Shown here in pieces: positions 14,872 to 51,716 of a stretch of DNA of 64,000 bases; positions within the stretch are counted from its first letter, which is position 1, and the number at the start of each line of letters is the position of its first letter. The notes beneath the pieces were generated by a model, which did no database searches, was not told the DNA's origin, and saw only the letters and a program-made list of their open reading frames with translations. The DNA is from Cyclobacteriaceae bacterium (GTDB lineage Bacteria; Bacteroidota; Bacteroidia; Cytophagales; Cyclobacteriaceae): the NCBI GenBank assembly GCA_019638395.1, contig JAHBTX010000004.1, positions 1-64,000 of the forward strand, read 5' to 3'. The position numbers were made by a program, and so were the translations under genes.

Positions 14872-14879
14872 AACCCAAT

Positions 14880-20996: not shown

Positions 20997-21002
20997 TGAC
21001 TT

Positions 21003-21245: not shown

Positions 21246-21288
21246 CCGGATTGACTCCGGATGAAATCTGGTAAAATGGGTAACTAAT

Positions 21289-21323
21289 AATTAGAGCCAA
21301 TTGGCTCTAATTATTTATATTTG
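21289..21323 (+). promoter_or_regulatory. Perfect 24-bp palindrome plus Bacteroidota -7 element
   Basis: AATTAGAGCCAA is followed directly by its exact complement at 21301-21312, a dyad long enough for an XRE dimer. Four bases later TATATTTG (21316-21323) matches the Bacteroidota -7 consensus TAnnTTTG. The dyad covers the -15 to -33 zone, the usual place for a repressor site. A second hairpin, CATCCGGA / TCCGGATG (21243-21263), lies at the regulator start. Confidence 0.7.
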
Positions 21324-21343
21324 ACATCTAAATCTTAAATAAA

Positions 21344-21727: not shown

Positions 21728-21730
21728 ATT

Positions 21731-26300: not shown

Positions 26301-26567
26301 GATGTCAGGTATGAATTTGCCATCAACAATATTCCTTATTTGACTGTATAGCTTAGGGTCGGCAATCGTCTTGTTATTATATTTTGTATTCGGCTTGAAG
26401 AACCAGTCAAAATCGCGCATCCTTATTCTAACATTTCTTTCGATGAACACTTTTCCGCTTAAGAAATCACCTAGGTTTTCATTCCAAGGTTCCTTAGCAT
26501 TAAGTGAATGACTCCATATACTTACGGGTAATTCAAAATATCGACTGTTCGGCAATTGTATTAGCAT
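23352..26567 (-). CDS. Primase-helicase replication protein (BT4734-like plus SF2 helicase)
   Basis: 1071-aa replication protein of the right island. The N-terminal part resembles the BT4734/VirE-N primase-like domain: KMIALDIDGVD near residue 137 supplies the acidic pair and SKSITGTGVYALVPV the next block, followed by RLRYWSPPDD. The C-terminal half is a helicase: Walker A DSPTNSGKTSTF near 413-420, Walker B as VVDEFHNV near 494, and VLMTGTNLK as motif III. It differs from the VapE-type initiator of the left island, so the two islands replicate with unrelated ATPases. The helicase has DEFH instead of DEAD/H. Located with an upstream 169-aa gene on the same strand. Confidence 0.78.
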   Translation of the reverse strand: MLIQLPNSRYFELPVSIWSHSLNAKEPWNENLGDFLSGKVFIERNVRIRMRDFDWFFKPNTKYNNKTIADPKLYSQIRNIVDGKFIPDIVEALRNYVSIHGKDGVVDAVKKMIPGATVSACFNKTRSKKEPHQVNKMIALDIDGVDTEHTIKKLKSLDICFWISKSITGTGVYALVPVSTDNLIGHFEAINLLMQKNGIGLDPLKDVTRLRYWSPPDDVIINENVKPFEDVYEVPDEVRINRGSKENPIQPLGATTNYDTGEYAKACHKKGLKNAAKNLKLNEGDIGDHLHTFLQYYHWAFNHYGLSLSYAVQWSWNNFFKDHPYIISKSHDVDRILQDFTGFYRSYQNQHHLFDFDKQKEASLCRENYDMELTLPVGEKLSSLHLPILFTENELNELYEGKDWKGWNKYLLDSPTNSGKTSTFTRYFLKQKIKGLIVVPTQGALEQIHADYPEAKLFYEKSKEISFNDVLICTTYASFEKLYKQINIYDRFLVVDEFHNVVLSTSKGYRNRELNVILDRIHKFQFVVLMTGTNLKCHHPILNSFKKLKVRYEKDTEKNLKIVYHDSSNHWNTIMKKVSSYAGLQVIYLDNKSASGSLGKLIQSLKKQGYSESEIQLANADQKSDAKYQNMILTGRVEAGLKIIIATKIFVEALNLYDQVEAFHILSPIHGAYMQQLVTRPRNNKQCDVYLYWHANSLEDRDSSYWFDQERYYQGQINWAANLIKAYEDTEWDDIHRETFGGAEVVRKKRVTFQTNDSGLSPLHEHGTTIVLECDYLNCDFNTQEQQVQLYSHNPNQLYEYLKQYNWVVLGEEVSRVNKDKIDKSELKARKKERAESIDCFIKQLVSRGALDNLVVLSEKSYGSAEWQIDIRKKYAYLGHLVKEENANELITQAVDKRAYEIIIKQIRIRQALLFSQGDLRQFANVIFDTFPLNSIWSSDEILKAITSIHRNTIPEFIRRNGITSRTMATQVLNLFVETKRTKKPEPGAIAPKGRKTKYVNALKIVSHHPLRNAKGEAIEPFSSKDNKFESSLDKRLIANYKTRLWSTPTEAEYLESQKDSHDIFQLPNIY

Positions 26568-34949: not shown

Positions 34950-34954
34950 TAGCA

Positions 34955-37858
34955 ATGAAACTAAAATTCGATAGCACACAACCTTACCAGACTCATGCAG
35001 TTTCGGCTATTGTCGATCTCTTCGATGGCCAACCCCTTGCTCAAGGTGATTTTACCGTAGAGATAAATGCATCAAATCGGGCAGAACAAAAAAGCATTTT
35101 TCAATCTGAACTTGGTATCGGAAATAATATTGTTATTAATGAAGAAGCTATCTACAAAAATCTAGCGGCAATTCAGGAACATAATGATCTCGACCCCATA
35201 AGCAAGGAAGATTTCATAAGCAACGGAATGAACTTTTCAGTTGAAATGGAAACTGGAACGGGAAAAACCTATGTGTATCTAAGAACAGTTTTCGAGTTAA
35301 ACCAAAAATACGGCTTCAAAAAATTCATCATTGTTGTTCCCAGCGTAGCCATTCGTGAAGGCACACTCAAGAATCTTGACATTACGCGTGATCACTTCTT
35401 GGCTCTATATAATAATGTTGAGTTCGAATACTTTGTGTACGATAGCAAGAAGCCAGGCAAGACCGCTCAGTTTGCCCGAAGTAATCAGTTGCAGGTGATG
35501 GTGATTAACATTGACGCCTTCAATAAGGATGTTAATAAGTTCAATCAGGAGTTGGATAAAACATTATGTGGCTTTAGCCCAAAGGAATTTGTTCAAGCTA
35601 CTAACCCGTTCGTAATAATAGATGAACCTCAAAGCGTTGACAACACACCAAAAGCGCAAGAGGCTATTCAATCGTTAAATCCATCATGCATTCTCAGATT
35701 CTCGGCAACACATAAAAACCTCTATAACTTAGTTTACAAACTCGATCCTGTTAAAGCTTACGAGCTTAGATTGGTAAAGCAAATAGTAGTGGCTTCGGTA
35801 ATGGGAGCCAATGCGCAAAATGATGGATACGTTAAGCTATTGGACGTTGACAATAAGAAAGGCATAAGGGCAAGAATAAGAATTCAAGTGCAGGGCAAGA
35901 GTGGTGTTGCTGAAAAGGATTTTTGGGTAACACAAAACACTGACCTGTTTACTCTTTCAAATGAAAGACCTGTTTACCAAAATGGTTTCGAGGTATTGGA
36001 TATTAGTGCGGAACCGGGAAATGAATACATTGACTTTACAGTTGGCAGATTATCAAAAGGTCAGGAGCGTGGTGGTATCAAAGAAGATTTGATGGATATT
36101 CAGATCAGGAATACCATCAAGAAGCACCTCGATAAAGAACTTCAGCTTAAAGGCCAAGGTATAAAAGTTTTGAGTTTGTTTTTCATTGATCGGGTAGCCA
36201 ACTATAGAAGTTATGATGAAAGCGGGGCAACTGTTAAGGGTAAATTTAACGTTGCTTTTGAGAACCATTACAAAGACCTGATAAAATTACCTCAATACAA
36301 AGAGCTTGATCAGTACTCTGTTGAGCAAATACATAACGGATATTTCTCTCAGGATAAGAAAGGAATTGTAAAAGATACAAACGGAAGCACTCAAGCGGAT
36401 GATGATACTTACTCTTTGATCATGAAGGACAAGGAGAAGTTACTTTCAATAGATGAACCTTTGAAATTCATTTTCTCACATTCAGCGTTACGAGAAGGTT
36501 GGGATAATCCGAATGTGTTTCAAATCTGCACGTTGAATGAGACTCGCTCCGTCTCTAAAAAACGTCAGGAGATTGGAAGGGGATTACGTTTGCCAGTCAA
36601 TCAAAATGGAGATCGTGTTTTTGATGACAACATTAATAAACTAACCATCGTTGCAAATGAAAGTTACGATGAGTTTGCTAAGAAGCTCCAAACGGAGTAT
36701 GAGGAAGATTGCGGTGTTACTTTTGGAAAGGTGCTCAAGCTTGCCTTTAAGGGCATCAGCCAATTGATCGGAGATGAAGAGGTGATTCTCAATAGAGAGC
36801 AGTCTGAAAGTATTTGGGAGAATCTCGTATCAAATGGAATACTCGATAATAGTGGTAAAATAAAGCCATCATTTAAACCTTCAGAAAGTGGCTTTACGTT
36901 GGGCTTGCCTGAAAGCTTTGCATCTATTGAGCCGGAAATAATTACTGTTCTCCAGAGTTATCAACTTGAAAGACACATCAAGTCCGATGAGGAACCGAAA
37001 CGACTTAAACTCAATAAGCAAATCTTTCTCGATCAAGAGTTTGAAAAACTCTGGAACAAGATTAAACACAGAACAACTTATCAGGTTGACTACAAGACTC
37101 CCAAGCTTGTTTCAAATTGTATTGATGCCATTAAGCGGATGGAGAAGATTGAACCTGTAACGATTAATTACAAAGAAGCTCAGCTTGGAGTGAAGGTTAA
37201 GGGAGTAACAACGGTAGAAACAAGAGCAAATATTCACAAAGTCGAGTACACTGGTGGCTTGCCAGACATTATAGCATATCTACAAAAACAAACTGAGTTA
37301 ACCCGAAAGACATTAGTTGATATTCTTACAGGGTGCGAAAGGTTAGCTGAGTTTGCGATTAACCCTCAAAAATTTATGGATGAAGTATCGTCCATCATAA
37401 ATCGAGAGCTTTATAAAGTGATGATTGATGGTATTAAGTATGAGAAGCTAACCATTGGTCAAACGGAATGGAGTATGCAGCTACTAAGGGAAGATGAATT
37501 GAAAGATTATTTCGAGCAATGTATGGCTGTAGAGAAGTCAATTTTTGATCGTGTTATCTATGAAAGTGAAATAGAGCGAAAATTCGCTGAAGACCTTGAC
37601 AAGCGCACCGACATAAAGTTGTTTGTTAAACTACCTAAGTGGTTCAGAGTGGAAACTCCAGTTGGTGAGTATATTCCAGATTGGGCTATCGTTAAACATA
37701 ATGATGAGACTATTTATTTGGTGCGTGAGACGAAGTCAACCAAGAACTTTGAGAAGCTGAGAAATACAGAGGCTGATAAGGTTAGGTGTGGAAGGAAACA
37801 CTTCGCGGCACTTGATGTCGACTTTGCAGTTGTTACTTCAGCCTCAGATATCGATTAA
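34955..37858 (+). CDS. Type III restriction subunit (Res)
   Basis: 967-aa restriction helicase-nuclease, the normal length for Res. Walker A METGTGKTYVY at about 98-108 and a DEPQ box (IIDEPQSVD, 223-226) are the Res-specific form of motifs I and II. FSATHKN is motif III and EIGRGLRLP motif VI. The C-terminus has the PD-(D/E)XK nuclease: IPDW (Asp909) and RETKS (Glu925, Lys927). With the preceding Mod it forms a complete type III enzyme that cuts near paired unmodified sites after ATP hydrolysis. The operon context with an SNF2 helicase and a zinc-hook ATPase is unusual for a plain type III system. Confidence 0.93.
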   Translation: MKLKFDSTQPYQTHAVSAIVDLFDGQPLAQGDFTVEINASNRAEQKSIFQSELGIGNNIVINEEAIYKNLAAIQEHNDLDPISKEDFISNGMNFSVEMETGTGKTYVYLRTVFELNQKYGFKKFIIVVPSVAIREGTLKNLDITRDHFLALYNNVEFEYFVYDSKKPGKTAQFARSNQLQVMVINIDAFNKDVNKFNQELDKTLCGFSPKEFVQATNPFVIIDEPQSVDNTPKAQEAIQSLNPSCILRFSATHKNLYNLVYKLDPVKAYELRLVKQIVVASVMGANAQNDGYVKLLDVDNKKGIRARIRIQVQGKSGVAEKDFWVTQNTDLFTLSNERPVYQNGFEVLDISAEPGNEYIDFTVGRLSKGQERGGIKEDLMDIQIRNTIKKHLDKELQLKGQGIKVLSLFFIDRVANYRSYDESGATVKGKFNVAFENHYKDLIKLPQYKELDQYSVEQIHNGYFSQDKKGIVKDTNGSTQADDDTYSLIMKDKEKLLSIDEPLKFIFSHSALREGWDNPNVFQICTLNETRSVSKKRQEIGRGLRLPVNQNGDRVFDDNINKLTIVANESYDEFAKKLQTEYEEDCGVTFGKVLKLAFKGISQLIGDEEVILNREQSESIWENLVSNGILDNSGKIKPSFKPSESGFTLGLPESFASIEPEIITVLQSYQLERHIKSDEEPKRLKLNKQIFLDQEFEKLWNKIKHRTTYQVDYKTPKLVSNCIDAIKRMEKIEPVTINYKEAQLGVKVKGVTTVETRANIHKVEYTGGLPDIIAYLQKQTELTRKTLVDILTGCERLAEFAINPQKFMDEVSSIINRELYKVMIDGIKYEKLTIGQTEWSMQLLREDELKDYFEQCMAVEKSIFDRVIYESEIERKFAEDLDKRTDIKLFVKLPKWFRVETPVGEYIPDWAIVKHNDETIYLVRETKSTKNFEKLRNTEADKVRCGRKHFAALDVDFAVVTSASDID

Positions 37859-38420: not shown

Positions 38421-38762
38421 TTAAGCTGCCTTTCCAATCTTTGATTTTACATCAGCTTTGGGCTCCTTCGCTTTCTTCACTCTGGGCAATTTCATACGAG
38501 TGAGTTGTACGAAATTGGCATAGTTTTCATCCGATAAAGGGTATTCTCCGAACAACTCTTGAGAGATAGCATGGTCAATTACTTTAACCACGCCTTTTGA
38601 CCCTGTCGTCATGGGGGTGTAGGTTCCATTTTCACCCAGTACCACGAAATCGTTTTTGCCTTTCTTTAGTGTAAGTAAAACGCTTAAGTTTTTCATTGTT
38701 AGTTTTGTGACGTTGAACATTTCGGAATTGGATTTTCCATTTCCGGCTGCTTTCATTTTCAA
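38421..38762 (-). CDS. Hypothetical protein (113 aa) of the right island core
   Basis: 113-aa basic protein with a beta-like middle (NDFVVLGENGTYTPMTTGSK) and a Lys/Ala-rich tail (KKAKEPKADVKSKIGKAA) resembling histone-like tails. No family recognised. Located downstream of the excisionase-like gene on the same strand, so part of the mobility core. The plus-strand R-M operon begins on its other side, the likely point of cargo insertion. Confidence 0.5.
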   Translation of the reverse strand: MKMKAAGNGKSNSEMFNVTKLTMKNLSVLLTLKKGKNDFVVLGENGTYTPMTTGSKGVVKVIDHAISQELFGEYPLSDENYANFVQLTRMKLPRVKKAKEPKADVKSKIGKAA

Positions 38763-38886: not shown

Positions 38887-39357
38887 TTACACTTTTATTT
38901 TAATAATCTCACCAGTAACCTCAGGGGTGACTTTTTCTACCCGAACAGATGCCCTGAAAGACTCAAGTTCCCCTACGGTGATCTTGACAACCTTATTATT
39001 GTACCTCTTTGTATTCAGCTTACCTTGACCTACCAGACGTTTGATTGTGCTCACGCTACAATCCAGATATGTAGCTGCATCTTCATAGCTTAACTCCCTA
39101 TCCAATTCCTTTTCCTTCATTCGTTCATCAAAGTCATGTCGACTAAATTCCTGTAAGGCTGATAATGCCGATTCAAAAAGCATCCGCTGGCATTGCACTA
39201 TGTGCTTGGCATCATAGCTATCAGTTTGTTGAAAGAGGATCAGCCAGACCTTTTCAAGATCATTCATTTTGACCTTGTCATTTTGCATAGCCTTGTACAT
39301 TTGCTCGTTTGAATCAAGCATAATGGGTATTTGTTTATCAGGACTTAGATATGTCAT
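38887..39357 (-). CDS. Excisionase-like HTH protein of the right island
   Basis: 156-aa protein. The C-terminal region LSYEDAATYLDCSVSTIKRL, then the wing GKLNTKRYNNKVVKITVGELESF, is an HTH_17/excisionase winged helix. The N-terminal 90 residues are helical and unassigned. It starts eight bases downstream of the recombinase, same strand, the classic int-xis arrangement. Expected function: directionality factor or repressor for the recombinase below. Confidence 0.78.
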   Translation of the reverse strand: MTYLSPDKQIPIMLDSNEQMYKAMQNDKVKMNDLEKVWLILFQQTDSYDAKHIVQCQRMLFESALSALQEFSRHDFDERMKEKELDRELSYEDAATYLDCSVSTIKRLVGQGKLNTKRYNNKVVKITVGELESFRASVRVEKVTPEVTGEIIKIKV

Positions 39358-39364: not shown

Positions 39365-40525
39365 TCATTTAAGTTTAGCCATCCAATCGGTGGTTTGGAG
39401 TTTCATCTTTTCAGAATAGTAGAAAAGCATATCGCTGTTTGTCCAGCCACACCAACCCATAATTATATTGTGAGGAATTCCATTTAGCAATGCTCGAGTC
39501 GCGAACGTATGTCGACCCACTGAGGTGCAAAGCATATCATAGAAGGGAACCGTTACAAATTCATTTATATCTTTTCGATATCGTATTACTTCTGTCCATC
39601 CTAGTGTTTTACCAATTGACTGAATTCCCTTATTCACTTTTTGACCCGACATTTTGGGAGGATTTTTAAGGATATGTTTGATTGCATCGTGTATAGGTAT
39701 TTTAAACCTTACCTTAGTCTTCCGAGCTACTTTATCGATACAACCGTTGTGTATGTCAGTTTTGATATTAAGGTGGAAGTAATCACTATATCGCATTCCG
39801 GTATATATCAACACGAGGAAAATATTCTTGATACTTTCCTCGAACTCACTTTTGGGAGCGTAATCCGATAGTTCCTTAATTCTCTCATCAGTGAGAAAGA
39901 TAAAATCCGGTTTGAATGTTGGTTTACTTAGCCTCTTCCATTCTATTCTTGGCAGAGGGTAACCTCCATCCTGGCACCATGTAACAAAACGCTTAAAATT
40001 CTTGTACCGTGTATAACCAGTATTAGCGTTTACATTACCCCGAAACTCATCAAGAATTTCATGTAAATAAGGAACACGTATAACCTTGCATACACGATCA
40101 TTGTTTATGATGATCTTTTGAAGAAGCTCATATCGCCAACGCAACCCCCTATTCATCTTTGGCTGATTGGAGATAAAGTCTTTGAATGCTTCACTTAAGA
40201 GTGCAGAACTATAATCCGCTATTGAATTATCTATTACCGATTCTTCCGGCTGCTTTAGTAGCTTAAGTATTTCCTTAATTCGATCAACATCAATAGTTCC
40301 ATGCGCTCTTAAGTCACTCAGAATTGCATCATCCAATTGTTTCTTATGAATCAGTATTTGCTCATTAAGGTTCTGCCAATTACGCATTGACTTAGGCTTA
40401 ATCAATCCCTTGCTATCTATTGCGCTCTTTGGCACTTTAACATTAGTTGTATGAAATATTCTCTTTCTCTGATTTGAGAAATGAACCTTCACACAACCCA
40501 TATGATATATTATAGTACTCTCCAT
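39365..40525 (-). CDS. Tyrosine recombinase (integrase) of the right island
   Basis: 386-aa Bacteroidota-type recombinase. The N-terminal region has an arm-binding/SAM-like domain (KRIFHTTNVKVPKSAIDSKG). Catalytic residues: Arg in TGMRYSD; SVGRHTFAT, where the first His of the HxxR box is Ser; Trp in GWCGW at the H/W position; and Tyr in MLFYYSE. The second Arg is kept. Such His substitutions occur in some Bacteroidota recombinases, so activity is possible. It lies in the middle of the island, over 12 kb from either attachment repeat, because of cargo on both sides. It is clearly not a recent duplicate of the recombinase at 14880-16118. Confidence 0.88.
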   Translation of the reverse strand: MESTIIYHMGCVKVHFSNQRKRIFHTTNVKVPKSAIDSKGLIKPKSMRNWQNLNEQILIHKKQLDDAILSDLRAHGTIDVDRIKEILKLLKQPEESVIDNSIADYSSALLSEAFKDFISNQPKMNRGLRWRYELLQKIIINNDRVCKVIRVPYLHEILDEFRGNVNANTGYTRYKNFKRFVTWCQDGGYPLPRIEWKRLSKPTFKPDFIFLTDERIKELSDYAPKSEFEESIKNIFLVLIYTGMRYSDYFHLNIKTDIHNGCIDKVARKTKVRFKIPIHDAIKHILKNPPKMSGQKVNKGIQSIGKTLGWTEVIRYRKDINEFVTVPFYDMLCTSVGRHTFATRALLNGIPHNIIMGWCGWTNSDMLFYYSEKMKLQTTDWMAKLK

Positions 40526-40843: not shown

Positions 40844-41203
40844 ATGAAGCACAAGGAAAGAAAGAATCTTAACAAAAAAGTGTTAAAGAAAAACAGAATC
40901 AATTTCTACAGAGTTCAGGGAGCATCAATAGCTTTCATTGAATTCTTAAGCATGTCTAATAATTTCAATGAAATTGTCAGCATGTGGCGATGGCTAACAA
41001 CTGAATTTGAAGAGAACGGAGTTGAAGACCGAATGATATTTGCTTTTTTCAAGAATGCTGGGGAATGGGGGTATGATATTCAATCACTATCATCGAAGTT
41101 GATTAATTCTTTAATGATAGTCGATTGGGATGAATTAGAGGTTGGTTGGTTGCAAAGTCATTTTGCGATTGCCAGCACACTTAATGTTAAGCAACCAAAA
41201 TAA
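40844..41203 (+). CDS. Small hypothetical protein, paralogue 1 of the glucosyltransferase operon
   Basis: 119-aa protein with a very basic N-terminal tail (KHKERKNLNKKVLKKNR) and a helical body (VQGASIAFIEFLSMSN, IVSMWRWLTTEF, FAFFKNAGEWG). The body matches the next gene in order and spacing, so the two come from a duplication. No family recognised. It is the first of four plus-strand genes that end with the T4-type glucosyltransferase. Confidence 0.6.
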   Translation: MKHKERKNLNKKVLKKNRINFYRVQGASIAFIEFLSMSNNFNEIVSMWRWLTTEFEENGVEDRMIFAFFKNAGEWGYDIQSLSSKLINSLMIVDWDELEVGWLQSHFAIASTLNVKQPK

Positions 41204-41238: not shown

Positions 41239-41619
41239 ATGAACACTGAAGAAAAATTTGACTGGATGCAGGGTGAACCGATCCCGGAGTTATCTAAAAA
41301 TGATTACTTCAAAATGCAAGGAGCCACGATGGCCTTTATTGAAGCATTGTATTATTCAAATGATGAAAAGCTTATTCATCACCTATGGGAATGGTTATTG
41401 AATCAATATTATATCCATAAGATCGATGATGACCACCTCTTTACGTTTTTTAAAATGGCTCAACAAGATGGGTGCAATATTGAAAGAATTTTAAGCAGGT
41501 TATTTTCGATACTCTTCAATAATCGTACTGACATCGAAGATGATACACCCGAAAGGATAGCTTGTGCCCTTGGAAGTTCATACTTCACTGATGAAAACTC
41601 TAAACCTAACAAAGTATGA
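41239..41619 (+). CDS. Small hypothetical protein, paralogue 2 of the glucosyltransferase operon
   Basis: 126-aa protein sharing the blocks MQGATMAFIEALYYSN, HHLWEWLLNQYY and FTFFKMAQQDGCNI with the gene before it, but with an acidic rather than basic N-terminus. The charge swap suggests a heterodimer or divergent roles (inference). Its stop overlaps the start of the next gene (ATGA). Confidence 0.6.
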   Translation: MNTEEKFDWMQGEPIPELSKNDYFKMQGATMAFIEALYYSNDEKLIHHLWEWLLNQYYIHKIDDDHLFTFFKMAQQDGCNIERILSRLFSILFNNRTDIEDDTPERIACALGSSYFTDENSKPNKV

Positions 41620-42042: not shown

Positions 42043-43119
42043 ATGAAAATAGCAGTTATTAGTTTAAACCAAAGAACGAAGCTTCAGGAACAGAACATTA
42101 GGTCACTAGAAGCAATATACCTCCGGCAATGGATAATGAAAACATTGAATTGTGAACACGTAGACTATGTGAGCACGAAGACGAAGCGAAGAATTCCCAT
42201 TGAAGATGTAGATTATTACAAGGATTCATTCTGCACAAATCTACTGGACTACGATCAGGTATTCGTTCACAATGACACCGATAATTTTATGGGAGGAGCT
42301 CTTCAGCGGCATACTATTAAGCAGATTAAAGAATTGTGTCAGTTTAAGGGAAGTATTTACTACTTCTACACCGACCCCAATTTGCATCTGCAAAATATGG
42401 CGAGAATCATTTATGATAGGCAAATTCGTGGCACGAAAACAGAGTTCAACACGGAATTACGGATAACCGAAGATGAGACTGTGAAATTTGCAAATTTGAA
42501 ATGGAAGATTATCTGGTGTGGTAAGAATTTTGAGGAATACTATAAAAACACCTACCTGAAATTAAAGCCATCCCTTCGTTGTCATGTCGCTCGTTCAAGA
42601 AATATCAAGGATTTCTTTGAGTTCATTTTTAAGTCAAGAATGAAAGAACTTCCAGAAAAAGCCCTTAGTCAACGTACCGTTGACATTACCTACTATGGGA
42701 ATTGGCGTCCAAAACGATTTCCGAAAATCAGATTATTTTTAACAAACGGCTTATCGAAACGAGTGATTGGGTTTGATAGTAAGAAAGTCACGTTGTCAAA
42801 TACAGAGTATTATGAGTATCTCAAACCGGAAGAACTTGGCCCGATGGTTCAGCAATCAATCGCAAGTATTGTCATTGGTGACCCAGATCACAATAATAAC
42901 ATCGTGACAGCCAGATTCTATGAAAACATACTTTTCAATGTGTGCTCCTTCATCGACTTAGAATATGACCCGGCAAAAGAGCTGTATAAATCTGATTTCC
43001 TAAAGGAGTTTATGTATGTGACTAATGGAACTGAATTGAGCAAAAAGATTCAGATGATAAAGGAAGATGAAGCATTGTTCAATAAAATTCTCAATCTGCA
43101 ACGTCTGGAGTTGAATTAA
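42043..43119 (+). CDS. Homologue of phage T4 DNA beta-glucosyltransferase
   Basis: 358-aa protein that I align, from memory, with T4 beta-glucosyltransferase (351 aa) over nearly its whole length. Shared blocks: N-terminal MKIAVISLN (T4 MKIAIINMG); LEAIYL with Glu23 (T4 Glu22); DYDQVFVHNDTDNFMGG; IYYFYTDPNL with Asp111 (T4 catalytic Asp100); YYGNWRPKR (the Arg loop); and VIGDPDHNNNIVTARFYENI with Arg291 and Glu294 (T4 Arg269/Glu272, UDP contacts). T4's enzyme transfers glucose from UDP-glucose to 5-hydroxymethylcytosine in DNA. All key residues seem kept. No hydroxymethylase gene is in the window, so the natural acceptor is open. It is the last gene of a four-gene operon with a terminator after it. 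Confidence 0.82.
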   Translation: MKIAVISLNQRTKLQEQNIRSLEAIYLRQWIMKTLNCEHVDYVSTKTKRRIPIEDVDYYKDSFCTNLLDYDQVFVHNDTDNFMGGALQRHTIKQIKELCQFKGSIYYFYTDPNLHLQNMARIIYDRQIRGTKTEFNTELRITEDETVKFANLKWKIIWCGKNFEEYYKNTYLKLKPSLRCHVARSRNIKDFFEFIFKSRMKELPEKALSQRTVDITYYGNWRPKRFPKIRLFLTNGLSKRVIGFDSKKVTLSNTEYYEYLKPEELGPMVQQSIASIVIGDPDHNNNIVTARFYENILFNVCSFIDLEYDPAKELYKSDFLKEFMYVTNGTELSKKIQMIKEDEALFNKILNLQRLELN

Positions 43120-43147
43120 TTTTCAATCTCTTGGTTTAAAATGGATA

Positions 43148-43179
43148 AACGGGCTCTTAAATAGAGTCCGTTTTTTTTT
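43148..43179 (+). terminator. Rho-independent terminator after the glucosyltransferase
   Basis: AACGGGCTC pairs with GAGTCCGTT (one mismatch) over a seven-base loop and is followed by nine T residues. It separates the glucosyltransferase operon from the GmrSD-like gene. Confidence 0.85.
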
Positions 43180-43244: not shown

Positions 43245-45032
43245 ATGGATGCAAAGTCAAAATCTCTGTCCTTTCTCTCAAACGAGGGTCTTGTTACAAT
43301 ACCATTTTTCCAACGTAGCTATGTTTGGGCGGAGGATAATTGGGAGGATCTTCTGGCTGATCTCCTGAATTTTAAGAAAAGTCATTTTCTTGGTTCGCTT
43401 ATATTAAAGCAACAGCCACCAAGAAGTGGCGAGCCGAAGGAGGTTCATGTGATAGACGGTCAACAACGACTTACTACCTTAAGTGTTTTGGTGAAAGCTC
43501 TATACGATTCTTTTGCTGATGACCTTAAAAGAAATTGTGAGATTTCGGTTAGATCAAATCTTTTTCATAAGCAGTATCAAACGGATAGTGAATACTTTGT
43601 AAAGATTCAGCACTCACACGTAGATGCTGCCTTTTTTCAACAAGTAATTAGATTCGGCATAGATGATGTGAATATCACTGAGGAAGAGCTAACAGACAAC
43701 CGGATTATTAAGTGCTATTGGTTTTTTAGACGTAAGCTGAGTGACATTGAAGAGAGCATTAGAAAGCGGCTCTTCAATAGTATCCTTGATCAGGAGAATA
43801 AAATGTTGGTTGTAATTGACCTCACTAGAGATGACGATGAGCAATCAATATTTGATACAATAAATAGTGCTGGTGTTCGGTTGAGTAGTGCAGACATAAT
43901 TAAGAACTCACTCTTTCAAAAACTATTGGAAATTCAAAAGGATCAGTCTAAGGCAGCGGCTATTTATAGAAGGACGTGGGAGAAATCATTCTTGAATGAC
44001 GAGGAAACAATTTCTTATTGGGAAAGAGAGAGAATAACAGGTCGATTAAAGAGGGATAATATAGAACTCCTTCTTCATGCGATAGCAGTCATAAAGGGAT
44101 TCTACGATCCAGACAAACATACATTGTCAGACCTGTCGCAGCTCTACAAAGAAATGATTGATGAATTCAGTGATGTCAAAAGCCTCACTGAATTCATTGA
44201 GGAAATATGTGAGTATTCGTCAATTTACAAAGACAAAATTCTTGAGTTTGAGAGTACTACATTGTTTGATTTCAAAAATTACAACCAAAGACTGTTTCAT
44301 ATTCTAGAAGCTTCGCAGATTTCCACATTTCATCCATTCATACTCTTTCTTCACAAGAAATATGGGAATAATGAGATTAAAGTTACTAAGCTACTATTTG
44401 ACTTAGAGAGATACTTAGTCAGAAGGATTATTGGAAAGGCTGAGACTAAAGGCTACAACAAGATATGCAGAGATTTTATTGACGACCCGGAATCAATTGA
44501 GCCTAAATTGGAAAAGGACTCGATTGTAATTGAAGGCTTAAAGGGGATTACAAATAAGAGTGCCGCAATAATACTTTTTTGGGTTGAGTTAGCTAGGAGG
44601 GCGAAGGAGAAGAAATTTGATACTAAGGAGCTGAAGTATAGCTATTCACTTGAACACTTAATGCCTCAGAAATGGGAAGAGTATTGGACAGACATTCCAT
44701 CGAAGAAAACCCCAGATGGATTAGAAATGAATGATGATCAGGCAAAAGCCGATAGATATGAGAAGATTTATTGGATCGGAAACATGACACTACTAACTTC
44801 TTCCTTAAACACATCTCTTCGTAACTACTCGTACGAAATAAAGATGAATGGTGAAGGTAGAAAGAAGGGAATCAAAGCCTATTCCGACTTATCAATAACT
44901 AAACACGATCTTGTCGAGCTATTCGATAGTGGAGACAAAACTTGGGATGAAGAAAAAATAATAGCACGAACTAATGCTCTATTCACAGAGATTGATTCGA
45001 TATGGGGTATCACGGCATCTGTAATCAAATAG
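43245..45032 (+). CDS. GmrSD-like type IV restriction enzyme (DUF262 plus DUF1524)
   Basis: 595-aa single-chain GmrS-GmrD fusion. DUF262 at the N-terminus: PFFQRSYVWAEDNW, then VIDGQQRLTTL (Asp71-Gly-Gln-Gln-Arg75), the ParB-like nucleotide-binding box. DUF1524 at the C-terminus: YSLEHLMPQ (His471) and IGNMTLLTSSLN ... N, an HNH-type nuclease. Both active blocks look intact. Family knowledge: GmrSD cleaves DNA carrying glucosylated hydroxymethylcytosine, as in T4, using NTPs. The gene directly upstream is a T4-type glucosyltransferase, though a terminator lies between. The 3' end overlaps the end of jetD on the opposite strand by eight bases. Confidence 0.88.
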   Translation: MDAKSKSLSFLSNEGLVTIPFFQRSYVWAEDNWEDLLADLLNFKKSHFLGSLILKQQPPRSGEPKEVHVIDGQQRLTTLSVLVKALYDSFADDLKRNCEISVRSNLFHKQYQTDSEYFVKIQHSHVDAAFFQQVIRFGIDDVNITEEELTDNRIIKCYWFFRRKLSDIEESIRKRLFNSILDQENKMLVVIDLTRDDDEQSIFDTINSAGVRLSSADIIKNSLFQKLLEIQKDQSKAAAIYRRTWEKSFLNDEETISYWERERITGRLKRDNIELLLHAIAVIKGFYDPDKHTLSDLSQLYKEMIDEFSDVKSLTEFIEEICEYSSIYKDKILEFESTTLFDFKNYNQRLFHILEASQISTFHPFILFLHKKYGNNEIKVTKLLFDLERYLVRRIIGKAETKGYNKICRDFIDDPESIEPKLEKDSIVIEGLKGITNKSAAIILFWVELARRAKEKKFDTKELKYSYSLEHLMPQKWEEYWTDIPSKKTPDGLEMNDDQAKADRYEKIYWIGNMTLLTSSLNTSLRNYSYEIKMNGEGRKKGIKAYSDLSITKHDLVELFDSGDKTWDEEKIIARTNALFTEIDSIWGITASVIK

Positions 45033-46191
45033 AGTGTAGAGTTCTCTTAAATAATAGCCTGATCTTCTCGTCAGCGTATGTCTGATCAATCTTTTCCTGC
45101 TCTAGTCGCAAATTATTCTCCTTTACGTGAGTATACAATTTCTGTTCGGCCTCTGACAAGGTTTTTAGGATTTGATTTGAGGCTGGCTGACCTCTTGAGT
45201 GTTTAAATCTATAAAAAGTTTCTTCATCCATCATTACTGCGGTGGTATCATTAAAATATGTTCTGAATTGATTTAGGATTTGAAACCCATGTGCATCAAT
45301 ATCACCCCAATAGAAGAAACACTTCTGTTTCAACCATATTATATTCTTTAGGTAACTAACCTGAAAGCCGCCACCACTCCAAAGTGCTATTGTATTTGGA
45401 AGTTCAGGGAGTGCCAAGAAATTCATCTCGTTTTCTGCAACAAATACGTACTTGCAAGCGATGTTCAGATGATCTAATTCGTAGACCAGAAAAGACAAAT
45501 CTGTGAACTTCTCCAGTGGAGACAACGTCTTATCCAAGAAACGGATTCGGATTCGTTTCTCTTTCTCCTTTAAATGAAATATCTGCTCAAATGTCTCACC
45601 TTTTAAATCAATTTTTGTAGGTATCAGATAACTAAGCAGTGACCTCATTAGGGGTTTATTTTCCTCAATATATTTGGTATGGATTTCTATTGGCAGTTGC
45701 CTAATGTAAAGATTGGGTGAAGGATTATTTAGAAAATACTCACATACCTTTAATGTTTCTGCCCAAGTATCATGTTCAATCAATCTCTGGGGATTAGAAA
45801 TTATCCATTCTTTCAAAATGGGGAGTCGACCAACAATTAGCTCCCAGTTTCGACAGAAAATAGCAAATTCTTTTTCTTTTTTTGTTAAGGCCAGATAATC
45901 CTCTAAACTGTCAATTGTTATTCTGACTGGTACTATCTGCACACCAATCCTATTGAATATTCTCTCCTCAGTAACGAGAGAGTAACCATGCTTTTTCGAA
46001 CCCTTCGAGTTTGCACTAAGCAAGTTAATTTCATCCTTATAGGTAGTCAGCTTGCTCAAAATATCCTTCGAGTTAACCTTGCCAATTCGATTGATCTCTC
46101 TCGGAAAGGATGAGTTACCCAAAATATATTCTACAAGAATATCCTTCCACCACTTCGTGCATTGTTCTTTGATATCATTCGGTGTAATCAT
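45025..46191 (-). CDS. jetD: Wadjet nuclease subunit JetD
   Basis: 388-aa JetD (DUF3322/DUF2220 type). The TOPRIM-like motif WGDIDAHGF lies at about residues 295-303, and this is the metal-binding core that cuts plasmid DNA. The upstream half contains the DUF3322 segment. Last gene of jetABCD; its ATG overlaps the jetC stop (ATGA). JetD is the subunit that makes Wadjet cleave closed circular DNA after loop extrusion by JetABC. Confidence 0.92.
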   Translation of the reverse strand: MITPNDIKEQCTKWWKDILVEYILGNSSFPREINRIGKVNSKDILSKLTTYKDEINLLSANSKGSKKHGYSLVTEERIFNRIGVQIVPVRITIDSLEDYLALTKKEKEFAIFCRNWELIVGRLPILKEWIISNPQRLIEHDTWAETLKVCEYFLNNPSPNLYIRQLPIEIHTKYIEENKPLMRSLLSYLIPTKIDLKGETFEQIFHLKEKEKRIRIRFLDKTLSPLEKFTDLSFLVYELDHLNIACKYVFVAENEMNFLALPELPNTIALWSGGGFQVSYLKNIIWLKQKCFFYWGDIDAHGFQILNQFRTYFNDTTAVMMDEETFYRFKHSRGQPASNQILKTLSEAEQKLYTHVKENNLRLEQEKIDQTYADEKIRLLFKRTLHSI

Positions 46192-49100
46192 TCGCTGATA
46201 TCAGTTACCTCAACACTCGTTTTTCTATTATTGAATATGAATTTGGCATTCCTGTATTCATCCACGGTCATGTTCTTTATTTCCGAATTATTACCCTCTG
46301 TATTTGAGACGTAGTGAACCGAGTTGATGTAGTTTTCAATGACATGAATTTTTTGGAGTGGCGTTACTATGAGTAATTGCAAATTCAGCTTTTTGAATAG
46401 TTCCAAACCATACTCAGCACTTGCATCGCTTCCTTTTCCGAATGCCTCATCAATAACCGCAAATCGAAATGACTTGCTTTTGGGTTCACCGATTTTCAAT
46501 CCAAATTGGTATGCTAGGGCAGATGCAATTATTGTATAGGCTAGCTTTTCCTTCTGCCCGCCAGATTTCCCGGAACTGCCAGAATAAAATTCTTTCTCCT
46601 CATTATTCTCAGAATATTTTTCACTGGCATTAAAGTCAAACCAATTTCGTACATCAGTTACTTTATTCGTCCAGTCTATATCCTTGTTTTCATTTCCTCG
46701 AAATCTGTTTAGGATTTTCTGAACATCATTAAATCTGTCTTCTGTGTAGGCATCATTAGCGTCCAGGATATTGCTATAACATGCCTTTAAATCTTCTCTG
46801 AAAGTTCTTATCTCTTGGTCTCTGTTTCTATCTGCAATCAATTCAATATATGTTCCTCTGTTGTATTCAATTTCCTTAAGGTGTTCGTTGATGTTCTTAA
46901 TTTTATTTTTTATCTCTTTTTCGTGAATGTCAAGTTTGTTATCGAATGCTACGATATCATTTATTGTATTCTCATTGAGCATGGTTTTTAAAGTTGCTTC
47001 ATGAGCAGGCAATCCCTCATATAAAATCTTTTCAAATTTATCGAGATACTCTCCCCTTGATTCTATCTCGACAGACAAGCTAAGCGCCTCGGACGGAAAT
47101 TCATCCTTGTATTCTTTCATTGTCTGAATAATTTTGTTGCTCTCTTTACCTTTTCGTTCGGAAAGCCTATCCTTTTCTTTGTTCTTTTTAGTAAACAAAT
47201 CGTCCCTTATCCCATCTATGCTTTTAATGGTATAAATTTGATCTTCTGTTTCTTTTTCAATTTTTGCGAAGAACGATTCTATTTCATTCTGTTGTAGAGT
47301 ATCAACTATCTTTCTACAAATTTCTATGTCTTCTTTATGACTTACTATTTTGCCATTCAACTGCCCTCGGGTTTCCAAGAGTTTATCTTTTGATTTTTCA
47401 TGATCTTTGATTTCATTTTGTATTGACTCCAGTTGAGCTTGTAATGTTCTGAAAATATCGTTGCTATTCCTCAATTCGTCTCGCTCTTTCTCCAACTGAA
47501 CTATTGCCTCGACTTCATCTTTCCAGTTAAGCTCAAACCAATTGCGATACCCAAGTATTTGACCCAGCTTGGATTGAAGGTTAGTGTTGCTTTCGCTTTC
47601 AGTAAGTAACTCTTTGATTTTATTGTTTAAAGTCTCCTTTTCGGTTTTCAGTTGATTTAGGTTCTTTTCGATAACACTAATCTTCTCCCTATTACTCCAA
47701 CCTAAAATGAAGTTTCTCCTATCCCATAGGTCTCGCCTATCATCTTTAATGTGACGATGATTGCCAACTTTATACTGCCCCTCCCTTGTGATGACATCGC
47801 TTGGGATTCGTTGAAACTCATCAAGAGATACGCACCGCAAATTGAATCGTTTTTGTAATTCAGAGTCCACCCAATCCTCAAATGGACTATCAGATTTAAT
47901 TTGAATTTTGTGTACGACTGACTCAGTATCAAGGTGGATATTTTGATTCAATTTGAAGGAATGTGGCACTTTAAAATACTCAAGTCTCATGCCCTTGCTC
48001 CGCGTGTCCAACAGCCGTATCTGATTGATGTAGTTACTTATTTGCGGGTAATGCCGCTCAGGCACTAACATACTTAAACCAAATCCTCTCAATAGTCTCT
48101 CTAACGCACCCTCCCAGTCCTTTTCTGAATCAATTACCTTCATCAGCTCTCCAACAAAAGGGATATCAGATTCAGAGACATTTAGAGACTGTGACAATTG
48201 TTTTCTAATTGATAAATAGTCAAGTGGAATTTGGTTCTCTCTTTGTTTCAATGAATCGAGTTCATTTGTTTCGATCTCGATCTCTTCTTCAATATTTGTT
48301 CTTTTCGCAGCAAATTTTCCATGTTCCTCTAGTATTTGCTTCTGCCGTAATTTCAAGTTATCAATTTTGATTTCTGCATTCTTCAAATTCCCAAAAAAAG
48401 TGGCTTCAGATTGAGCGATTTCCAATTCGCAGAATTGAGTTAATTTGGAATACTCTTCATGCCTCTCCTTCTTCGTTTTTTGTAGCTTCTCTTTAGTCAG
48501 TATTTCCTCATCGATCTTTTCCAATCGCTCACCACCATTACTTCTAATGTCTTGCTTGATCTGACTTGCCGTGTTTCTTTTATTAGAAAGAGCCTCTTCA
48601 ATTTCACTTAGTTGTCCGGTCAATTGCAGAAGTTTACGTTCACTGTCTTCGATTTCATCAGCTAACAACTTCATCTTTTTGGATGAGAAGAATCCGGGGA
48701 TAGAACTTATAGTATTTTCAATGTCTTGAATTCTTTCTTCGAACTCTCGAAAGTTCCGACAAAGGGCAACGAGCGGTTCCAGAACGTCTCTCTGTCTTCT
48801 AGCATCTAGAACTGCCTGATGAGCTTTGTTTAAGTCATCAAATCTTTTCTTAAGATCTTCGATCTGAATTTTAATATCAGTTCGCTCTAGCATTTGTTCT
48901 CTAACAAAAGTTGTTAGATTACTAACTGACTTCATTGAAACAGTCTGATAGAACAGATCGACTGCTTTATCTGTTTGCATTCCAAACAAATGTCGGAACC
49001 GTTGACTATATCTTGAGAAATTGTCATCAAAAACTTCGGTATGAGCAAGCTCCTTCAATCTCTTTCTTAACTCCTTAACATCTTCAATATTTGAAAACTG

Positions 49101-49601
49101 TTCTTTTATTGACAGAGGTAGCTTCTCTCTGATTATCAAAAGTTTGTGGGCTTTGTCATTCTCAATCCAAAATACCTGCGCCAGTGAGATTGACTCATGG
49201 TATCCCACATTAGAAAAGTTGGCTACTATGACACTGAAAGTGGTGTCCGAAGGATTGTTGTAACGTAAGGTTACGGATTTTTCTCTTGAGTCTTTTAGAT
49301 CACTATCCTCCGTTTTGGTGTTTTTAAACTCACCTTTAATATATGTTGCTAAGCTGCGTTCGTTTTTTTCGGCTCCAGCCGCTTTGTTGAAGCTTATTTT
49401 TTGATGTGGAACAATTAAACAAGTTATTGCATCAACCAATGTAGATTTTCCAGACCCAACATCTCCAGTCAAAAGGGAATTATTGCCGTTCGGTTCAATC
49501 TTCCAAATGTTTCTATTGAAAGTTCCCCAGTTGAGAACTTCCACAGATTGAAGACGAAACCCAATTTGCGAGCTGTTATTATTTGATCCTATTTCATTCA
49601 T
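46188..49601 (-). CDS. jetC: Wadjet SMC-like ATPase JetC
   Basis: 1137-aa SMC/MukB-like protein. Walker A GDVGSGKST at 46-54, long coiled coils with a hinge-like central region, the signature GSSGKSGGQKEK and Walker B FAVIDEAFGKGSD near the C-terminus. It drives ATP-dependent extrusion of DNA with JetA and JetB. Length and motif order match type I Wadjet. Start overlaps the jetB stop by four bases. Confidence 0.95.
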   Translation of the reverse strand: MNEIGSNNNSSQIGFRLQSVEVLNWGTFNRNIWKIEPNGNNSLLTGDVGSGKSTLVDAITCLIVPHQKISFNKAAGAEKNERSLATYIKGEFKNTKTEDSDLKDSREKSVTLRYNNPSDTTFSVIVANFSNVGYHESISLAQVFWIENDKAHKLLIIREKLPLSIKEQFSNIEDVKELRKRLKELAHTEVFDDNFSRYSQRFRHLFGMQTDKAVDLFYQTVSMKSVSNLTTFVREQMLERTDIKIQIEDLKKRFDDLNKAHQAVLDARRQRDVLEPLVALCRNFREFEERIQDIENTISSIPGFFSSKKMKLLADEIEDSERKLLQLTGQLSEIEEALSNKRNTASQIKQDIRSNGGERLEKIDEEILTKEKLQKTKKERHEEYSKLTQFCELEIAQSEATFFGNLKNAEIKIDNLKLRQKQILEEHGKFAAKRTNIEEEIEIETNELDSLKQRENQIPLDYLSIRKQLSQSLNVSESDIPFVGELMKVIDSEKDWEGALERLLRGFGLSMLVPERHYPQISNYINQIRLLDTRSKGMRLEYFKVPHSFKLNQNIHLDTESVVHKIQIKSDSPFEDWVDSELQKRFNLRCVSLDEFQRIPSDVITREGQYKVGNHRHIKDDRRDLWDRRNFILGWSNREKISVIEKNLNQLKTEKETLNNKIKELLTESESNTNLQSKLGQILGYRNWFELNWKDEVEAIVQLEKERDELRNSNDIFRTLQAQLESIQNEIKDHEKSKDKLLETRGQLNGKIVSHKEDIEICRKIVDTLQQNEIESFFAKIEKETEDQIYTIKSIDGIRDDLFTKKNKEKDRLSERKGKESNKIIQTMKEYKDEFPSEALSLSVEIESRGEYLDKFEKILYEGLPAHEATLKTMLNENTINDIVAFDNKLDIHEKEIKNKIKNINEHLKEIEYNRGTYIELIADRNRDQEIRTFREDLKACYSNILDANDAYTEDRFNDVQKILNRFRGNENKDIDWTNKVTDVRNWFDFNASEKYSENNEEKEFYSGSSGKSGGQKEKLAYTIIASALAYQFGLKIGEPKSKSFRFAVIDEAFGKGSDASAEYGLELFKKLNLQLLIVTPLQKIHVIENYINSVHYVSNTEGNNSEIKNMTVDEYRNAKFIFNNRKTSVEVTDISE

Positions 49602-50179
49602 TCAGTTGGCTCATTTGATGATTGGTTTGCATAGTTTTGAAGAATTTCCAAGGATTCTTTCACAACGTCAGCATTCACGAATGCTTTGATAATCCGATTA
49701 ATTTCATACTGCTCATCTTCCGTTTTCATTTTCCGTAAGAACCCCTCATCAATTACCCGCTTGAAGGCAGCCTCTATCTGTTTTTGTTGAAGAGCCTCAT
49801 TCGTTGTTTCCTTATAAAAAGGCTTTAGTAAATTGACAATTTCCTCTTTTGTTAAAATTGCCTTCGATGACTCTCCCTCCCTGTCGTTTTCTATTAAGTG
49901 CTTTCTAAGGAGTAAGCACAGCAAAGACACATGAAAATTAAGTTGCCTTCTTTCGAGTAATCTTGGAAGGTCATCCTCATCGGAGTCTTCTGACATTTTT
50001 TGCTTTAGATAGGCGTATCCTTCAGATTTGTCAATTATCAAATCTAGATTGATATCTGCAAAGTATTTCTTAACGCCAGACTCATGTTCTGGTCGTATTA
50101 AATCGTCCCATACCTTTTCGTTGTGGCTATAAACAACTCCTTTTAATAGAGCAATTAAAATATGTGAGTATGGTTTCAT
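49598..50179 (-). CDS. jetB: Wadjet subunit JetB (DUF4194)
   Basis: 193-aa JetB, the MukE-like kite subunit (DUF4194). Recognised by position between jetA and jetC and by its winged-helix-type sequence (VSLLCLLLRKHLIEND, VIDEGFLRKM). It links JetA to the SMC heads. It overlaps jetA by one base and jetC by four, so the complex is made in balanced amounts. Confidence 0.88.
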   Translation of the reverse strand: MKPYSHILIALLKGVVYSHNEKVWDDLIRPEHESGVKKYFADINLDLIIDKSEGYAYLKQKMSEDSDEDDLPRLLERRQLNFHVSLLCLLLRKHLIENDREGESSKAILTKEEIVNLLKPFYKETTNEALQQKQIEAAFKRVIDEGFLRKMKTEDEQYEINRIIKAFVNADVVKESLEILQNYANQSSNEPTE

Positions 50180-51633
50180 TATTTACAAAAAATGATCTGT
50201 GGAATTTTCAATTTGAATTTCTTGTCCGTTTTTGAATTCACAATTTCTATGAACTCTATACTGTCTTCTTTTATGATATGTTTTTTCTCATTTGTTGCGA
50301 TTTCGATGTAGGCTACGACTTCAGCAACTCCTTTTTTGATTTCAAATTCGTGTATAAAGTCTGAAAATGTAATGTGAGTTTTGTTTTTAAGAGAGTTCCT
50401 TATGTTGTCCTTAAGCTCCGTCATGTTAATTTCGAATTGAGTAAATAGTGCTGCATCATTATCAGATGTAGTAACTCCATCTTCGAAGTTGCTATCGGCA
50501 AATTTAACTTTTTGAGGTGGTTTAAACCCCCTAATTTTCCAGTCGTAGGCCATGATCAGTTCAATGTCAATCACATCTTCTATTCTCAAAAAATCTATTT
50601 TACTGAAATCAAGATCACTATTATTAGCAATAACCTTTAGAATTTCATTTATGTTATCATAGATTCTTTTGTTCTCGGTGAAAGACTTATGCTCCAAGTA
50701 CTTTCTTAATTGCTCAAGTAATGAATTGGTAGACCGTTTCGTTTTGTCACCAGCCTCTATCAAATCATTTCTGATATTCGCTATGTTTAAATTTTCACGC
50801 TGAACTTCCTGAACTGCTGGGAGACTTAAAACATCATTGATATATTGCTCAAGTTCTTCTTGCTTTGACTGAGACAAAAGGAATTCCCAAAATGCATTAA
50901 AACTTTTTCCTTGATCTTGCTCTAGTAAATTGGCTTGTTGTTGAAACAAATCTTCCAATACTTTTCCTTTGACCAAAGTAGTGGTAATGATTTTCTGTCT
51001 AAAATGCTTGTCTAAGTCACGGAAGTTCTGCTCTACTTGTTTGAAATCTGCCAACAGATTCTGTGCGGTATCCTCTATAATAAAATATTGCTCCTTTATC
51101 TGTCGGTCATCGAGAACATCCATTTTACCACCCTTTACGTCCTCAATTTCCTTTTCGATTTGCTTTTTTCTTTGCTCCAATTCTTTTAATCGCGAGAGAT
51201 AGTCTCGTTTCGACTTAGTTGCCAGTTCTTTCAGGCTTTCGAATAATTGTTTCAATCTTGACTCTTGGCCTATAAATTCCCTTTTGTCTAAGCTATCAAT
51301 CCATTTGAAAGCATTTTCGGTAGCTGGTGTTAGCTCAAAAGCAAATTCATCATTTTTTGTAGGGTACTTTCGTAAGTATCCCGCATTGCTCCACTCTGTC
51401 AGATATTGCTTAGGTGGTCTCGGGAACTGTGCTTTATCTGCGTTGAGAATAAATAGGTAGTCTGAGAGTTGTTCAGTTAAATCTTTTTCAGAAACAATAT
51501 CGGTTTTAAACCCATTAGGATTTTGCTTAAATGACCGGAAGAGAAAACTAATAATTAATGCAGCATTATCTGCTGTGATCAGCGTCACGGTTCTATGAGT
51601 CTTTAAGAGCTGATATAATTTCTCGAAGGTCAT
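50179..51633 (-). CDS. jetA: Wadjet subunit JetA (DUF3375)
   Basis: 484-aa JetA, the MukF-like kleisin (DUF3375). Family start visible as MTFEKLYQLLKTHRTVTLIT, then ADNAALIISFLFRSF; I therefore moved the start to the ATG at 51633, dropping 15 residues of the longer frame (MTKEIRYFIVL). The middle is a coiled coil (SRLKELEQRKKQIEKEIED), and the C-terminus is a winged domain. First gene of jetABCD; divergent from the reverse transcriptase. Confidence 0.9.
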   Translation of the reverse strand: MTFEKLYQLLKTHRTVTLITADNAALIISFLFRSFKQNPNGFKTDIVSEKDLTEQLSDYLFILNADKAQFPRPPKQYLTEWSNAGYLRKYPTKNDEFAFELTPATENAFKWIDSLDKREFIGQESRLKQLFESLKELATKSKRDYLSRLKELEQRKKQIEKEIEDVKGGKMDVLDDRQIKEQYFIIEDTAQNLLADFKQVEQNFRDLDKHFRQKIITTTLVKGKVLEDLFQQQANLLEQDQGKSFNAFWEFLLSQSKQEELEQYINDVLSLPAVQEVQRENLNIANIRNDLIEAGDKTKRSTNSLLEQLRKYLEHKSFTENKRIYDNINEILKVIANNSDLDFSKIDFLRIEDVIDIELIMAYDWKIRGFKPPQKVKFADSNFEDGVTTSDNDAALFTQFEINMTELKDNIRNSLKNKTHITFSDFIHEFEIKKGVAEVVAYIEIATNEKKHIIKEDSIEFIEIVNSKTDKKFKLKIPQIIFCK

Positions 51634-51716
51634 TTTATGGCATTTGAGCACTATAAAATAGCGAATTTCCTTCGTCAAGTAGTGTCATTATGGGCTTTTT
51701 GGCTCAATTCTGTTTG

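What the first reader, a model, noticed from the sequence alone, without database searches (positions are those of the whole stretch)
42043..43119. A T4-type DNA beta-glucosyltransferase encoded in a bacterial genomic island
Aligned from memory with T4 beta-glucosyltransferase, nearly the whole length matches, including LEAIYL (T4 Glu22), YFYTDP (catalytic Asp100), the Arg loop YGNWRPKR and R-x2-E in VTARFYEN (UDP contacts). T4 beta-GT homologues are known mainly from phages that make hydroxymethylcytosine. This one sits in a non-phage island with three small co-transcribed genes and no hydroxymethylase. It might protect island DNA, glucosylate incoming hmC-phage DNA, or act on another acceptor such as a nucleotide.
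Basis: partly seen in the sequence, partly recalled or inferred. Interest (0 to 1): 0.85.

Follow-up and report, generated by a model that had tools for sequence, protein, structure and literature searches.

The report
Phage-type DNA glucosyltransferase in bacterial island
A bacterium carries, inside a mobile cluster of anti-virus genes, a relative of the virus enzyme that puts sugar on modified viral DNA, yet no recognisable gene to make that modified DNA was found in it, so the target may come from an invading virus.

Summary
Confirmed: window 42043-43119 (+) encodes a 358-aa full-length homologue of T4 DNA beta-glucosyltransferase (PF09198, PHROG 7922, PDB 1bgt; profile-profile E 1.8e-30) with the main catalytic and UDP-glucose residues kept. 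The host is a Cytophagales bacterium (inferred from a named congener). One other carrier was found among the genomes sampled, a congener (61% identity); the pair forms a deep branch apart from the sampled phage enzymes. Of 41 viral loci with this gene (many near-identical; 18 clusters among 40), 40 hold a thymidylate-synthase/dCMP-hydroxymethylase-family gene; the two bacterial loci hold none, and each genome has one ThyA-like gene and no TET/JBP over cut-off. The gene sits among defence genes (type III RM, GmrSD, Wadjet, DrmD-like, RT) and goes with the backbone of a rare integrative element in both species, not with GmrSD, which the second lacks. The acceptor-side stretch (T4 101-137) looks rewritten (1 of 6 conserved columns kept, 19 of 34 elsewhere; p 0.09). 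Best reading: an element-borne glucosyltransferase acting in trans on hydroxymethylated DNA of invading phages.

The parts
42043..43119 (+). T4-type beta-glucosyltransferase homologue, 358 aa (E23, N81, D111, R222, R225, R291, E294)
42376..42453 (+). codons of residues 112-137, acceptor-side stretch next to the catalytic Asp; similar in the two bacterial proteins and unlike the phage enzymes, with extra residues relative to T4
   Evidence: the exact register differs between the alignments
40844..41203 (+). small gene 1 of the putative operon, 119 aa, no family over cut-off; 32% identical to small gene 2
41239..41619 (+). small gene 2, 126 aa, no family over cut-off; no match in the phage collection
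41616..42038 (+). small gene 3, 140 aa, no family over cut-off; no match in the phage collection, and in 235 family genomes only its own
43147..43173 (+). terminator-like hairpin plus T run between the glucosyltransferase and GmrSD genes
   Evidence: 3 such sites found in the region, 1.5 expected; this one has the longest stem
43245..45032 (+). [quoted passage not shown] two other published motifs not matched by the pattern used)
39365..40525 (-). tyrosine integrase, divergent from the glucosyltransferase operon
38887..39357 (-). excisionase-like HTH protein
38421..38762 (-). 113-aa element backbone protein, about 60% identical in G137
20036..23040 (+). genes shared with the G137 element (201, 124, 216, 220 aa; an 80-aa XRE regulator on the other strand at 21003-21245; the 127-aa gene at 21344-21727 showed no G137 relative)
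23352..26567 (-). primase/helicase-like protein, 1071 aa (Pfam BT4734-like_N and DEAD just under cut-off; PHROG primase/helicase E 8.5e-7)
32937..37858 (+). type III restriction-modification (methyltransferase 32937-34949, nuclease 34955-37858)
45025..51678 (-). Wadjet type I genes JetD, JetC, JetB and a DUF3375 protein in the place of JetA (that last name recalled)

Best explanation
The gene encodes a UDP-glucose-dependent glucosyltransferase of the T4 beta-GT family that belongs to a rare, defence-loaded integrative element of one Cytophagales genus. The cell has no recognisable route to hydroxymethyl-pyrimidines, so the acceptor is most likely hydroxymethylated DNA that appears only during infection by a phage with modified pyrimidines. 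The enzyme would take such a base into its N-domain pocket and add glucose from host UDP-glucose. The outcome I think most likely is that element DNA, or the infecting phage DNA, becomes glucosylated on the element's terms: this either shields element copies from modification-dependent nucleases while they replicate in an infected cell, or disturbs the phage's own modification programme. Shown: homology, kept catalytic and donor residues, missing hydroxymethylase, element and defence context, amino-acid constraint between two species. Inferred: activity, acceptor, timing and benefit.
For: Full-length homology. Of 17 columns invariant in 22 phage rows both bacterial proteins keep 14, among them E22, G73, G74, D100, R191, R195, G214, R269; N70 and E272 (95% in phages) are kept too. 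Intact in two species, dN 0.34 (NG86), synonymous change saturated, third-position difference 0.62 against 0.23 at second positions. 40 of 41 viral BGT loci have a TS/dCMP-hydroxymethylase-family gene, median gap 485 bp; window and G137 loci none. By clusters at 90% identity this is 17 of 18 (L059 not clustered). Each genome holds one ThyA-like gene and no TET/JBP over cut-off. In 62 genus genomes the two with BGT are the two with a close copy of the 201-aa backbone protein. In G137 the gene is next to a 205-aa gene and a VapE-type primase, type I RM beyond. Both loci lie among defence genes. Precedent for host editing of phage base modification: BapA removes glucose so that Brig3 can excise hmC (PMC13160076, abstract and discussion read).
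Against: The acceptor-side stretch is changed (1 of 6 conserved columns kept, W117 and Q137 lost), so hmC in DNA may not be the acceptor; some donor-side neighbours are changed as well (Y261 to His, G187 to Tyr, F190 to Trp, G193 gone). Only two carriers are known, so the link with the backbone rests on n = 2, and the backbone profile was built from those same two. The place of the gene in the element differs: between backbone and primase in G137, beyond the integrase in the window. No hydroxymethylated phage of this host was found or sought by name. The element ends are not established (17-bp repeat at 18362/53322; 6 of 60 simulations also have a shared 17-mer).
Confidence: 0.42

Rival explanations
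1. Tag-and-cut defence: the host enzyme glucosylates hydroxymethylated phage DNA and the neighbouring GmrSD nuclease then recognises and cuts it, a mirror image of the BapA-Brig3 pair.
For: GmrSD gene 125 bp downstream on the same strand; GmrSD is known to target glucosyl-hmC (PMC4619093 abstract start and passages; PMC13216743 passages); host editing of phage modifications has a precedent (PMC13160076 abstract and discussion).
Against: A terminator-like hairpin lies between the genes; the second carrier G137 has no GmrSD_N match; a single-chain GmrSD already cuts hmC DNA without glucose (PMC4437046 passages), and BrxU cuts a range of C5-modified cytosines (PMC13390438 passages); GmrSD genes are common in defence islands in general (PMC4619093 passages).
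Confidence: 0.15
2. Changed acceptor: the enzyme kept the UDP-glucose site but now glucosylates another target, for example a different modified base, a nucleotide, an RNA or a small molecule, perhaps as an infection-triggered effector together with the three small proteins.
For: Acceptor-side stretch changed and alike in the two bacterial proteins; long stem branch of 3.17 changes per column; no hydroxymethylase in the cell; C-terminus shorter than in T4.
Against: Catalytic base D100, E22 and N70-G73-G74 of the N domain are kept (their closeness to the flipped base in T4 is recalled); the contrast of the stretch with the rest is only p 0.09, one-sided; no toxin- or antitoxin-like family over cut-off among the small genes (a sub-threshold RnlA_toxin_N match E 0.062 for small gene 1).
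Confidence: 0.27
3. Relic: a phage gene captured by an island, without present function.
For: The gene is rare: accepted matches only in G000 and G137.
Against: Intact in two species with amino-acid constraint and the catalytic residues kept; the pair is not nested within either of the two phage groups of the tree, whose root is unknown and which warns of long branches.
Confidence: 0.08

Closest known systems
Phage T4 DNA beta-glucosyltransferase (Pfam PF09198, PDB 1bgt; CAZy GT63 recalled)
   Same: Full-length homology; equivalents of E22, N70, D100, R191, R195, R269, E272 kept
   Different: About 26% identity; bacterial island without hydroxymethylase; conserved columns of T4 101-137 changed; shorter C-terminus
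BapA-Brig3 (PMC13160076, abstract and discussion read)
   Same: Host enzyme that edits phage base modification, within a defence island (analogy only)
   Different: BapA removes glucose; here glucose would be added. No sequence comparison with BapA or Brig3 was made.
GmrSD / BrxU type IV restriction (PMC4619093, PMC13390438, PMC4437046, passages seen)
   Same: A member lies next to the gene in the window
   Different: Absent from the second carrier genome; a terminator-like site lies between

Membership tests
T4 DNA beta-glucosyltransferase family (PF09198) | Match to the family model above its curated cut-off | tested here: met
   36.9 bits against 27; G137 protein 27.4; PHROG 7922 E 1.6e-21; hhalign E 1.8e-30
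T4 DNA beta-glucosyltransferase family (PF09198) | Catalytic base D100 and donor-site residues R191, R195, R269, E272 (roles recalled) | tested here: met
   D111, R222, R225, R291, E294
T4 DNA beta-glucosyltransferase family (PF09198) | Columns of T4 101-137 conserved in the phage enzymes (L103, Q107, W109, W117, Y121, Q137) | tested here: not met
   1 of 6 kept in both bacterial proteins, L103; not a published definition of the family
T4 DNA beta-glucosyltransferase family (PF09198) | GT-B fold | not testable with these tools
   structure job interrupted, then tool switched off
T4 DNA beta-glucosyltransferase family (PF09198) | Glucose transfer from UDP-glucose to hmC in DNA | not testable with these tools
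   needs an enzyme assay
Phage hydroxymethyl-pyrimidine modification pathway | Hydroxymethylase gene in the same genome | tested here: not met
   one ThyA-like PF00303 gene each, no TET/JBP over cut-off in G000 or G137; no T4 gp42 or VPE25 TS match in the window or the G137 loci L009, L010, L064
Two-gene BGT-GmrSD defence system | Conserved co-occurrence | tested here: not met
   1 of 2 BGT genomes has GmrSD_N genes
Prophage | Phage structural genes around the gene | tested here: inconclusive
   no structural-gene match at E below 0.01 among the proteins scanned; the 161-aa protein at 37876-38361 has weak tail and terminase-named PHROG matches (E 0.013, 0.052). Not every island ORF was scanned

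The most novel reading that the evidence does not exclude
A two-step, modification-adding immune strategy: a mobile defence element uses its own glucosyltransferase to complete or overwrite the sugar coat on hydroxymethylated phage DNA, so that a glucose-sensing nuclease such as the adjacent GmrSD destroys it.
Probability: 0.15. Interest if true: 0.9.

Novelty: new variant of a known kind. Interest (0 to 1): 0.62.

Why it matters
T4-type beta-GT is known as a phage protection enzyme and a laboratory reagent. A cellular, element-borne lineage without a hydroxymethylase would mean that mobile elements use phage-type DNA glycosylation in trans, for self-protection or for attack, and would give a natural beta-GT with a changed acceptor side. 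It makes a direct test possible: purified protein, UDP-glucose and hmC DNA.

Tried and rejected
Close relatives in viral contigs: the single-protein and the pair queries gave nothing, nor did a DNA pattern. Two apparent hits with a 53-residue query were judged chance: one motif lies inside an 811-aa ORF of a phage contig (portal-like by eye), the other in no ORF listed there. Weak partial matches were not accepted as BGT: G571, G488, G600 and G1286. The G571 one is a DUF1972/glycosyltransferase-1 protein, G488 and G600 lie in frames of over 2400 aa; G1286 (72 model positions, E 6e-4) was not followed up.

Plasmids: no match in 72,556 records. Genome contigs: first scan nothing, second only the G137 record. 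Relatives of the small genes: none in phages for small genes 2 and 3 (small gene 1 not searched there), none in viral contigs for the pair 1+2, none in 235 family genomes besides the own one for small gene 3.

Island ends: a 17-bp direct repeat at 18362/53322 is not significant (6 of 60 simulations share a 17-mer). G137 has a 17-bp repeat at 48974/72818 with a third similar copy near 73726, not tested against simulations.

Conserved BGT-GmrSD pair: rejected as an obligate unit because G137 lacks GmrSD_N. YN00 dN/dS failed with an error; only NG86 gave dN.

Full report
Observation. The ORF at 42043-43119 (+) is intact, 358 aa. It passes the PF09198 cut-off (36.9 against 27 bits, residues 1-126), matches PHROG 7922 over residues 1-355 (E 1.6e-21) and T4 BGT in the PDB over residues 1-355 (E 1.3e-14). 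A profile of the two bacterial proteins against 13 phage BGTs gives probability 99.8, E 1.8e-30 over 329 columns. NCBIfam and PADLOC have no match. The homology is well beyond chance.

Site residues. On an alignment with T4, Acinetobacter, Erwinia and Enterococcus (VPE25) phage proteins and one from a 462-kb uncultured phage, T4 E22, N70, G73, G74, D100, R191, R195, R269 and E272 map to E23, N81, G84, G85, D111, R222, R225, R291 and E294. Of 40 columns at least 90% conserved in 22 phage rows, both bacterial proteins keep 20: 6 of 12 in the rest of the N domain, 1 of 6 in T4 101-137, 13 of 22 in the C domain (domain limits recalled). Of 17 invariant columns they keep 14; W117, Q137 and P232 are lost. 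The contrast of 1 of 6 with 19 of 34 has a one-sided p of 0.09, for invariant columns only 0.06, so it is suggestive. In the C domain Y261, G187, F190 and G193 also differ. The register of the loop differs between alignments (W117 faces I128, T137). What this stretch touches in T4 is recalled, not tested.

Distribution. Matches accepted as BGT: 2 of 245 family genomes, 2 of 62 genus genomes, 2 of 390 order genomes, always G000 and G137; in the phylum and class samples only the own genome of 395 each, after dropping 3 and 1 weak partial matches. The samples overlap. Its protein is 354 aa from the ATG and 61% identical. tblastn finds 116 of 50,697 phage records and none of 72,556 plasmids. In a maximum-likelihood tree of 24 rows the two bacterial proteins group together (100/100) on a stem of 3.17 changes per column, between two phage groups; the program warns of long branches. 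dN is 0.34 and synonymous change is saturated.

Missing partner. Of 41 viral loci found with a phage-wide profile, 40 hold a gene similar to T4 gp42 or the VPE25 thymidylate-synthase-family protein, 37 within 2 kb of the BGT, median gap 485 bp; only L029 lacks one. Many loci are near copies: 40 of the 41 fall into 18 clusters at 90% identity, 17 of them with the partner. The five annotated phage loci L012-L016 have it too. Similarity cannot tell hydroxymethylase from thymidylate synthase in every case. The window and the G137 loci have none. Each of the two genomes has a single PF00303 gene of ThyA type and no PF12851 match over cut-off.

Surroundings. Upstream lie three small genes with gaps of 35, -4 and 4 bp, two of them paralogues (32%), none with a family over cut-off. 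Divergently lie an integrase and an excisionase-like gene. Downstream, after a terminator-like hairpin, is a single-chain GmrSD enzyme, then Wadjet genes and a reverse transcriptase. To the left are type III RM, a DrmD-like helicase and an AAA protein. In 4-kb steps G+C is 0.355-0.384 from 20 to 52 kb, 0.389 to 0.427 from 52 to 64 kb, and 0.377-0.433 before 20 kb.

Element. Window genes at 20036-23040, the 113-aa gene and the integrase have relatives in G137 within about 23 kb around its BGT. There the BGT is next to a 205-aa gene and a VapE-type primase; a type I RM locus with an AAA_13 gene and a candidate defence pair lie beyond. The 201-aa backbone protein is found in 4 of 62 genus genomes: G000 and G137, from which the profile was made, and more distantly G684 and G241. 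The 113-aa protein is in 3 of 196 family genomes. The third, G084, also has a related integrase (43%), excisionase-like gene and XRE regulator, with another integrase and efflux genes between; its handle falls in the range given out, where only G000 and G137 matched (inferred). BGT goes with the close backbone in 2 of 2 cases while the rest of the cargo differs. That is suggestive at n = 2, not proof.

GmrSD link. G137 has no GmrSD_N match, G000 has two. A single-chain GmrSD cuts hmC DNA without glucose, and in cells it restricted wild-type T4 and glucosyltransferase-less T4 only weakly unless an internal protein was missing (PMC4437046 passages); BrxU has a broad range (PMC13390438 passages). 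An obligate pair is not supported; a functional link in the window is possible.

Literature. A 2026 survey of T-even GTs searched viruses, and from fold comparison proposes a cellular origin of alpha- and beta-GT (PMC13216743, passages and discussion read). BapA-Brig3 shows that hosts edit phage modifications (PMC13160076, abstract and discussion). CMoRE is another type IV nuclease for hmC and ghmC (PMC12923530, abstract and passages). In the rows listed (titles and abstract starts, lists partly cut) I saw no report of a cellular T4-type BGT; subscription papers are mostly not held and protein databases such as nr were not searched.

Verdict. A real, rare, bacterial branch of the T4 BGT family in a defence-loaded integrative element, most likely acting on hydroxymethylated DNA brought by phages, with a changed acceptor side that leaves the acceptor open. 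Not shown: activity, fold, acceptor, benefit.

Noticed in passing
L009:6026-9178 (G137): The HsdR-type gene of a type I RM locus appears as two ORFs (842 aa and a 196-aa C-terminal part), and an AAA_13 protein (PADLOC PDC-S06) lies between the specificity and methylase genes.
   Followed up: no
window 7700-8434 and L009:4052-4798: An 86% identical protein (PADLOC PDC-M41B/M30B) is shared by the window and G137 although it lies in different surroundings, which suggests exchange of a candidate defence pair.
   Followed up: no
window 10531-16160: A second element-like stretch with a primase distantly related to the G137 VapE primase (23% identity) and an ORF at 14880-16160 with similarity to the G137 integrase (20%).
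   Followed up: no
window 51868-53166: A reverse transcriptase beside Wadjet that matches generic RT, UG17 and group II models, none over the NCBIfam cut-off.
   Followed up: partly
L015 (Enterococcus phage VPE25): A BGT homologue beside a thymidylate-synthase-family gene and a dUTPase in a phage of a Gram-positive host.
   Followed up: no
L029: The only one of 41 viral BGT loci without a recognisable TS-family gene in its 20.8 kb.
   Followed up: no
L064:9060-9194 (G137): A 44-residue basic ORF whose stop codon overlaps the start of the BGT gene, as in translational coupling.
   Followed up: no
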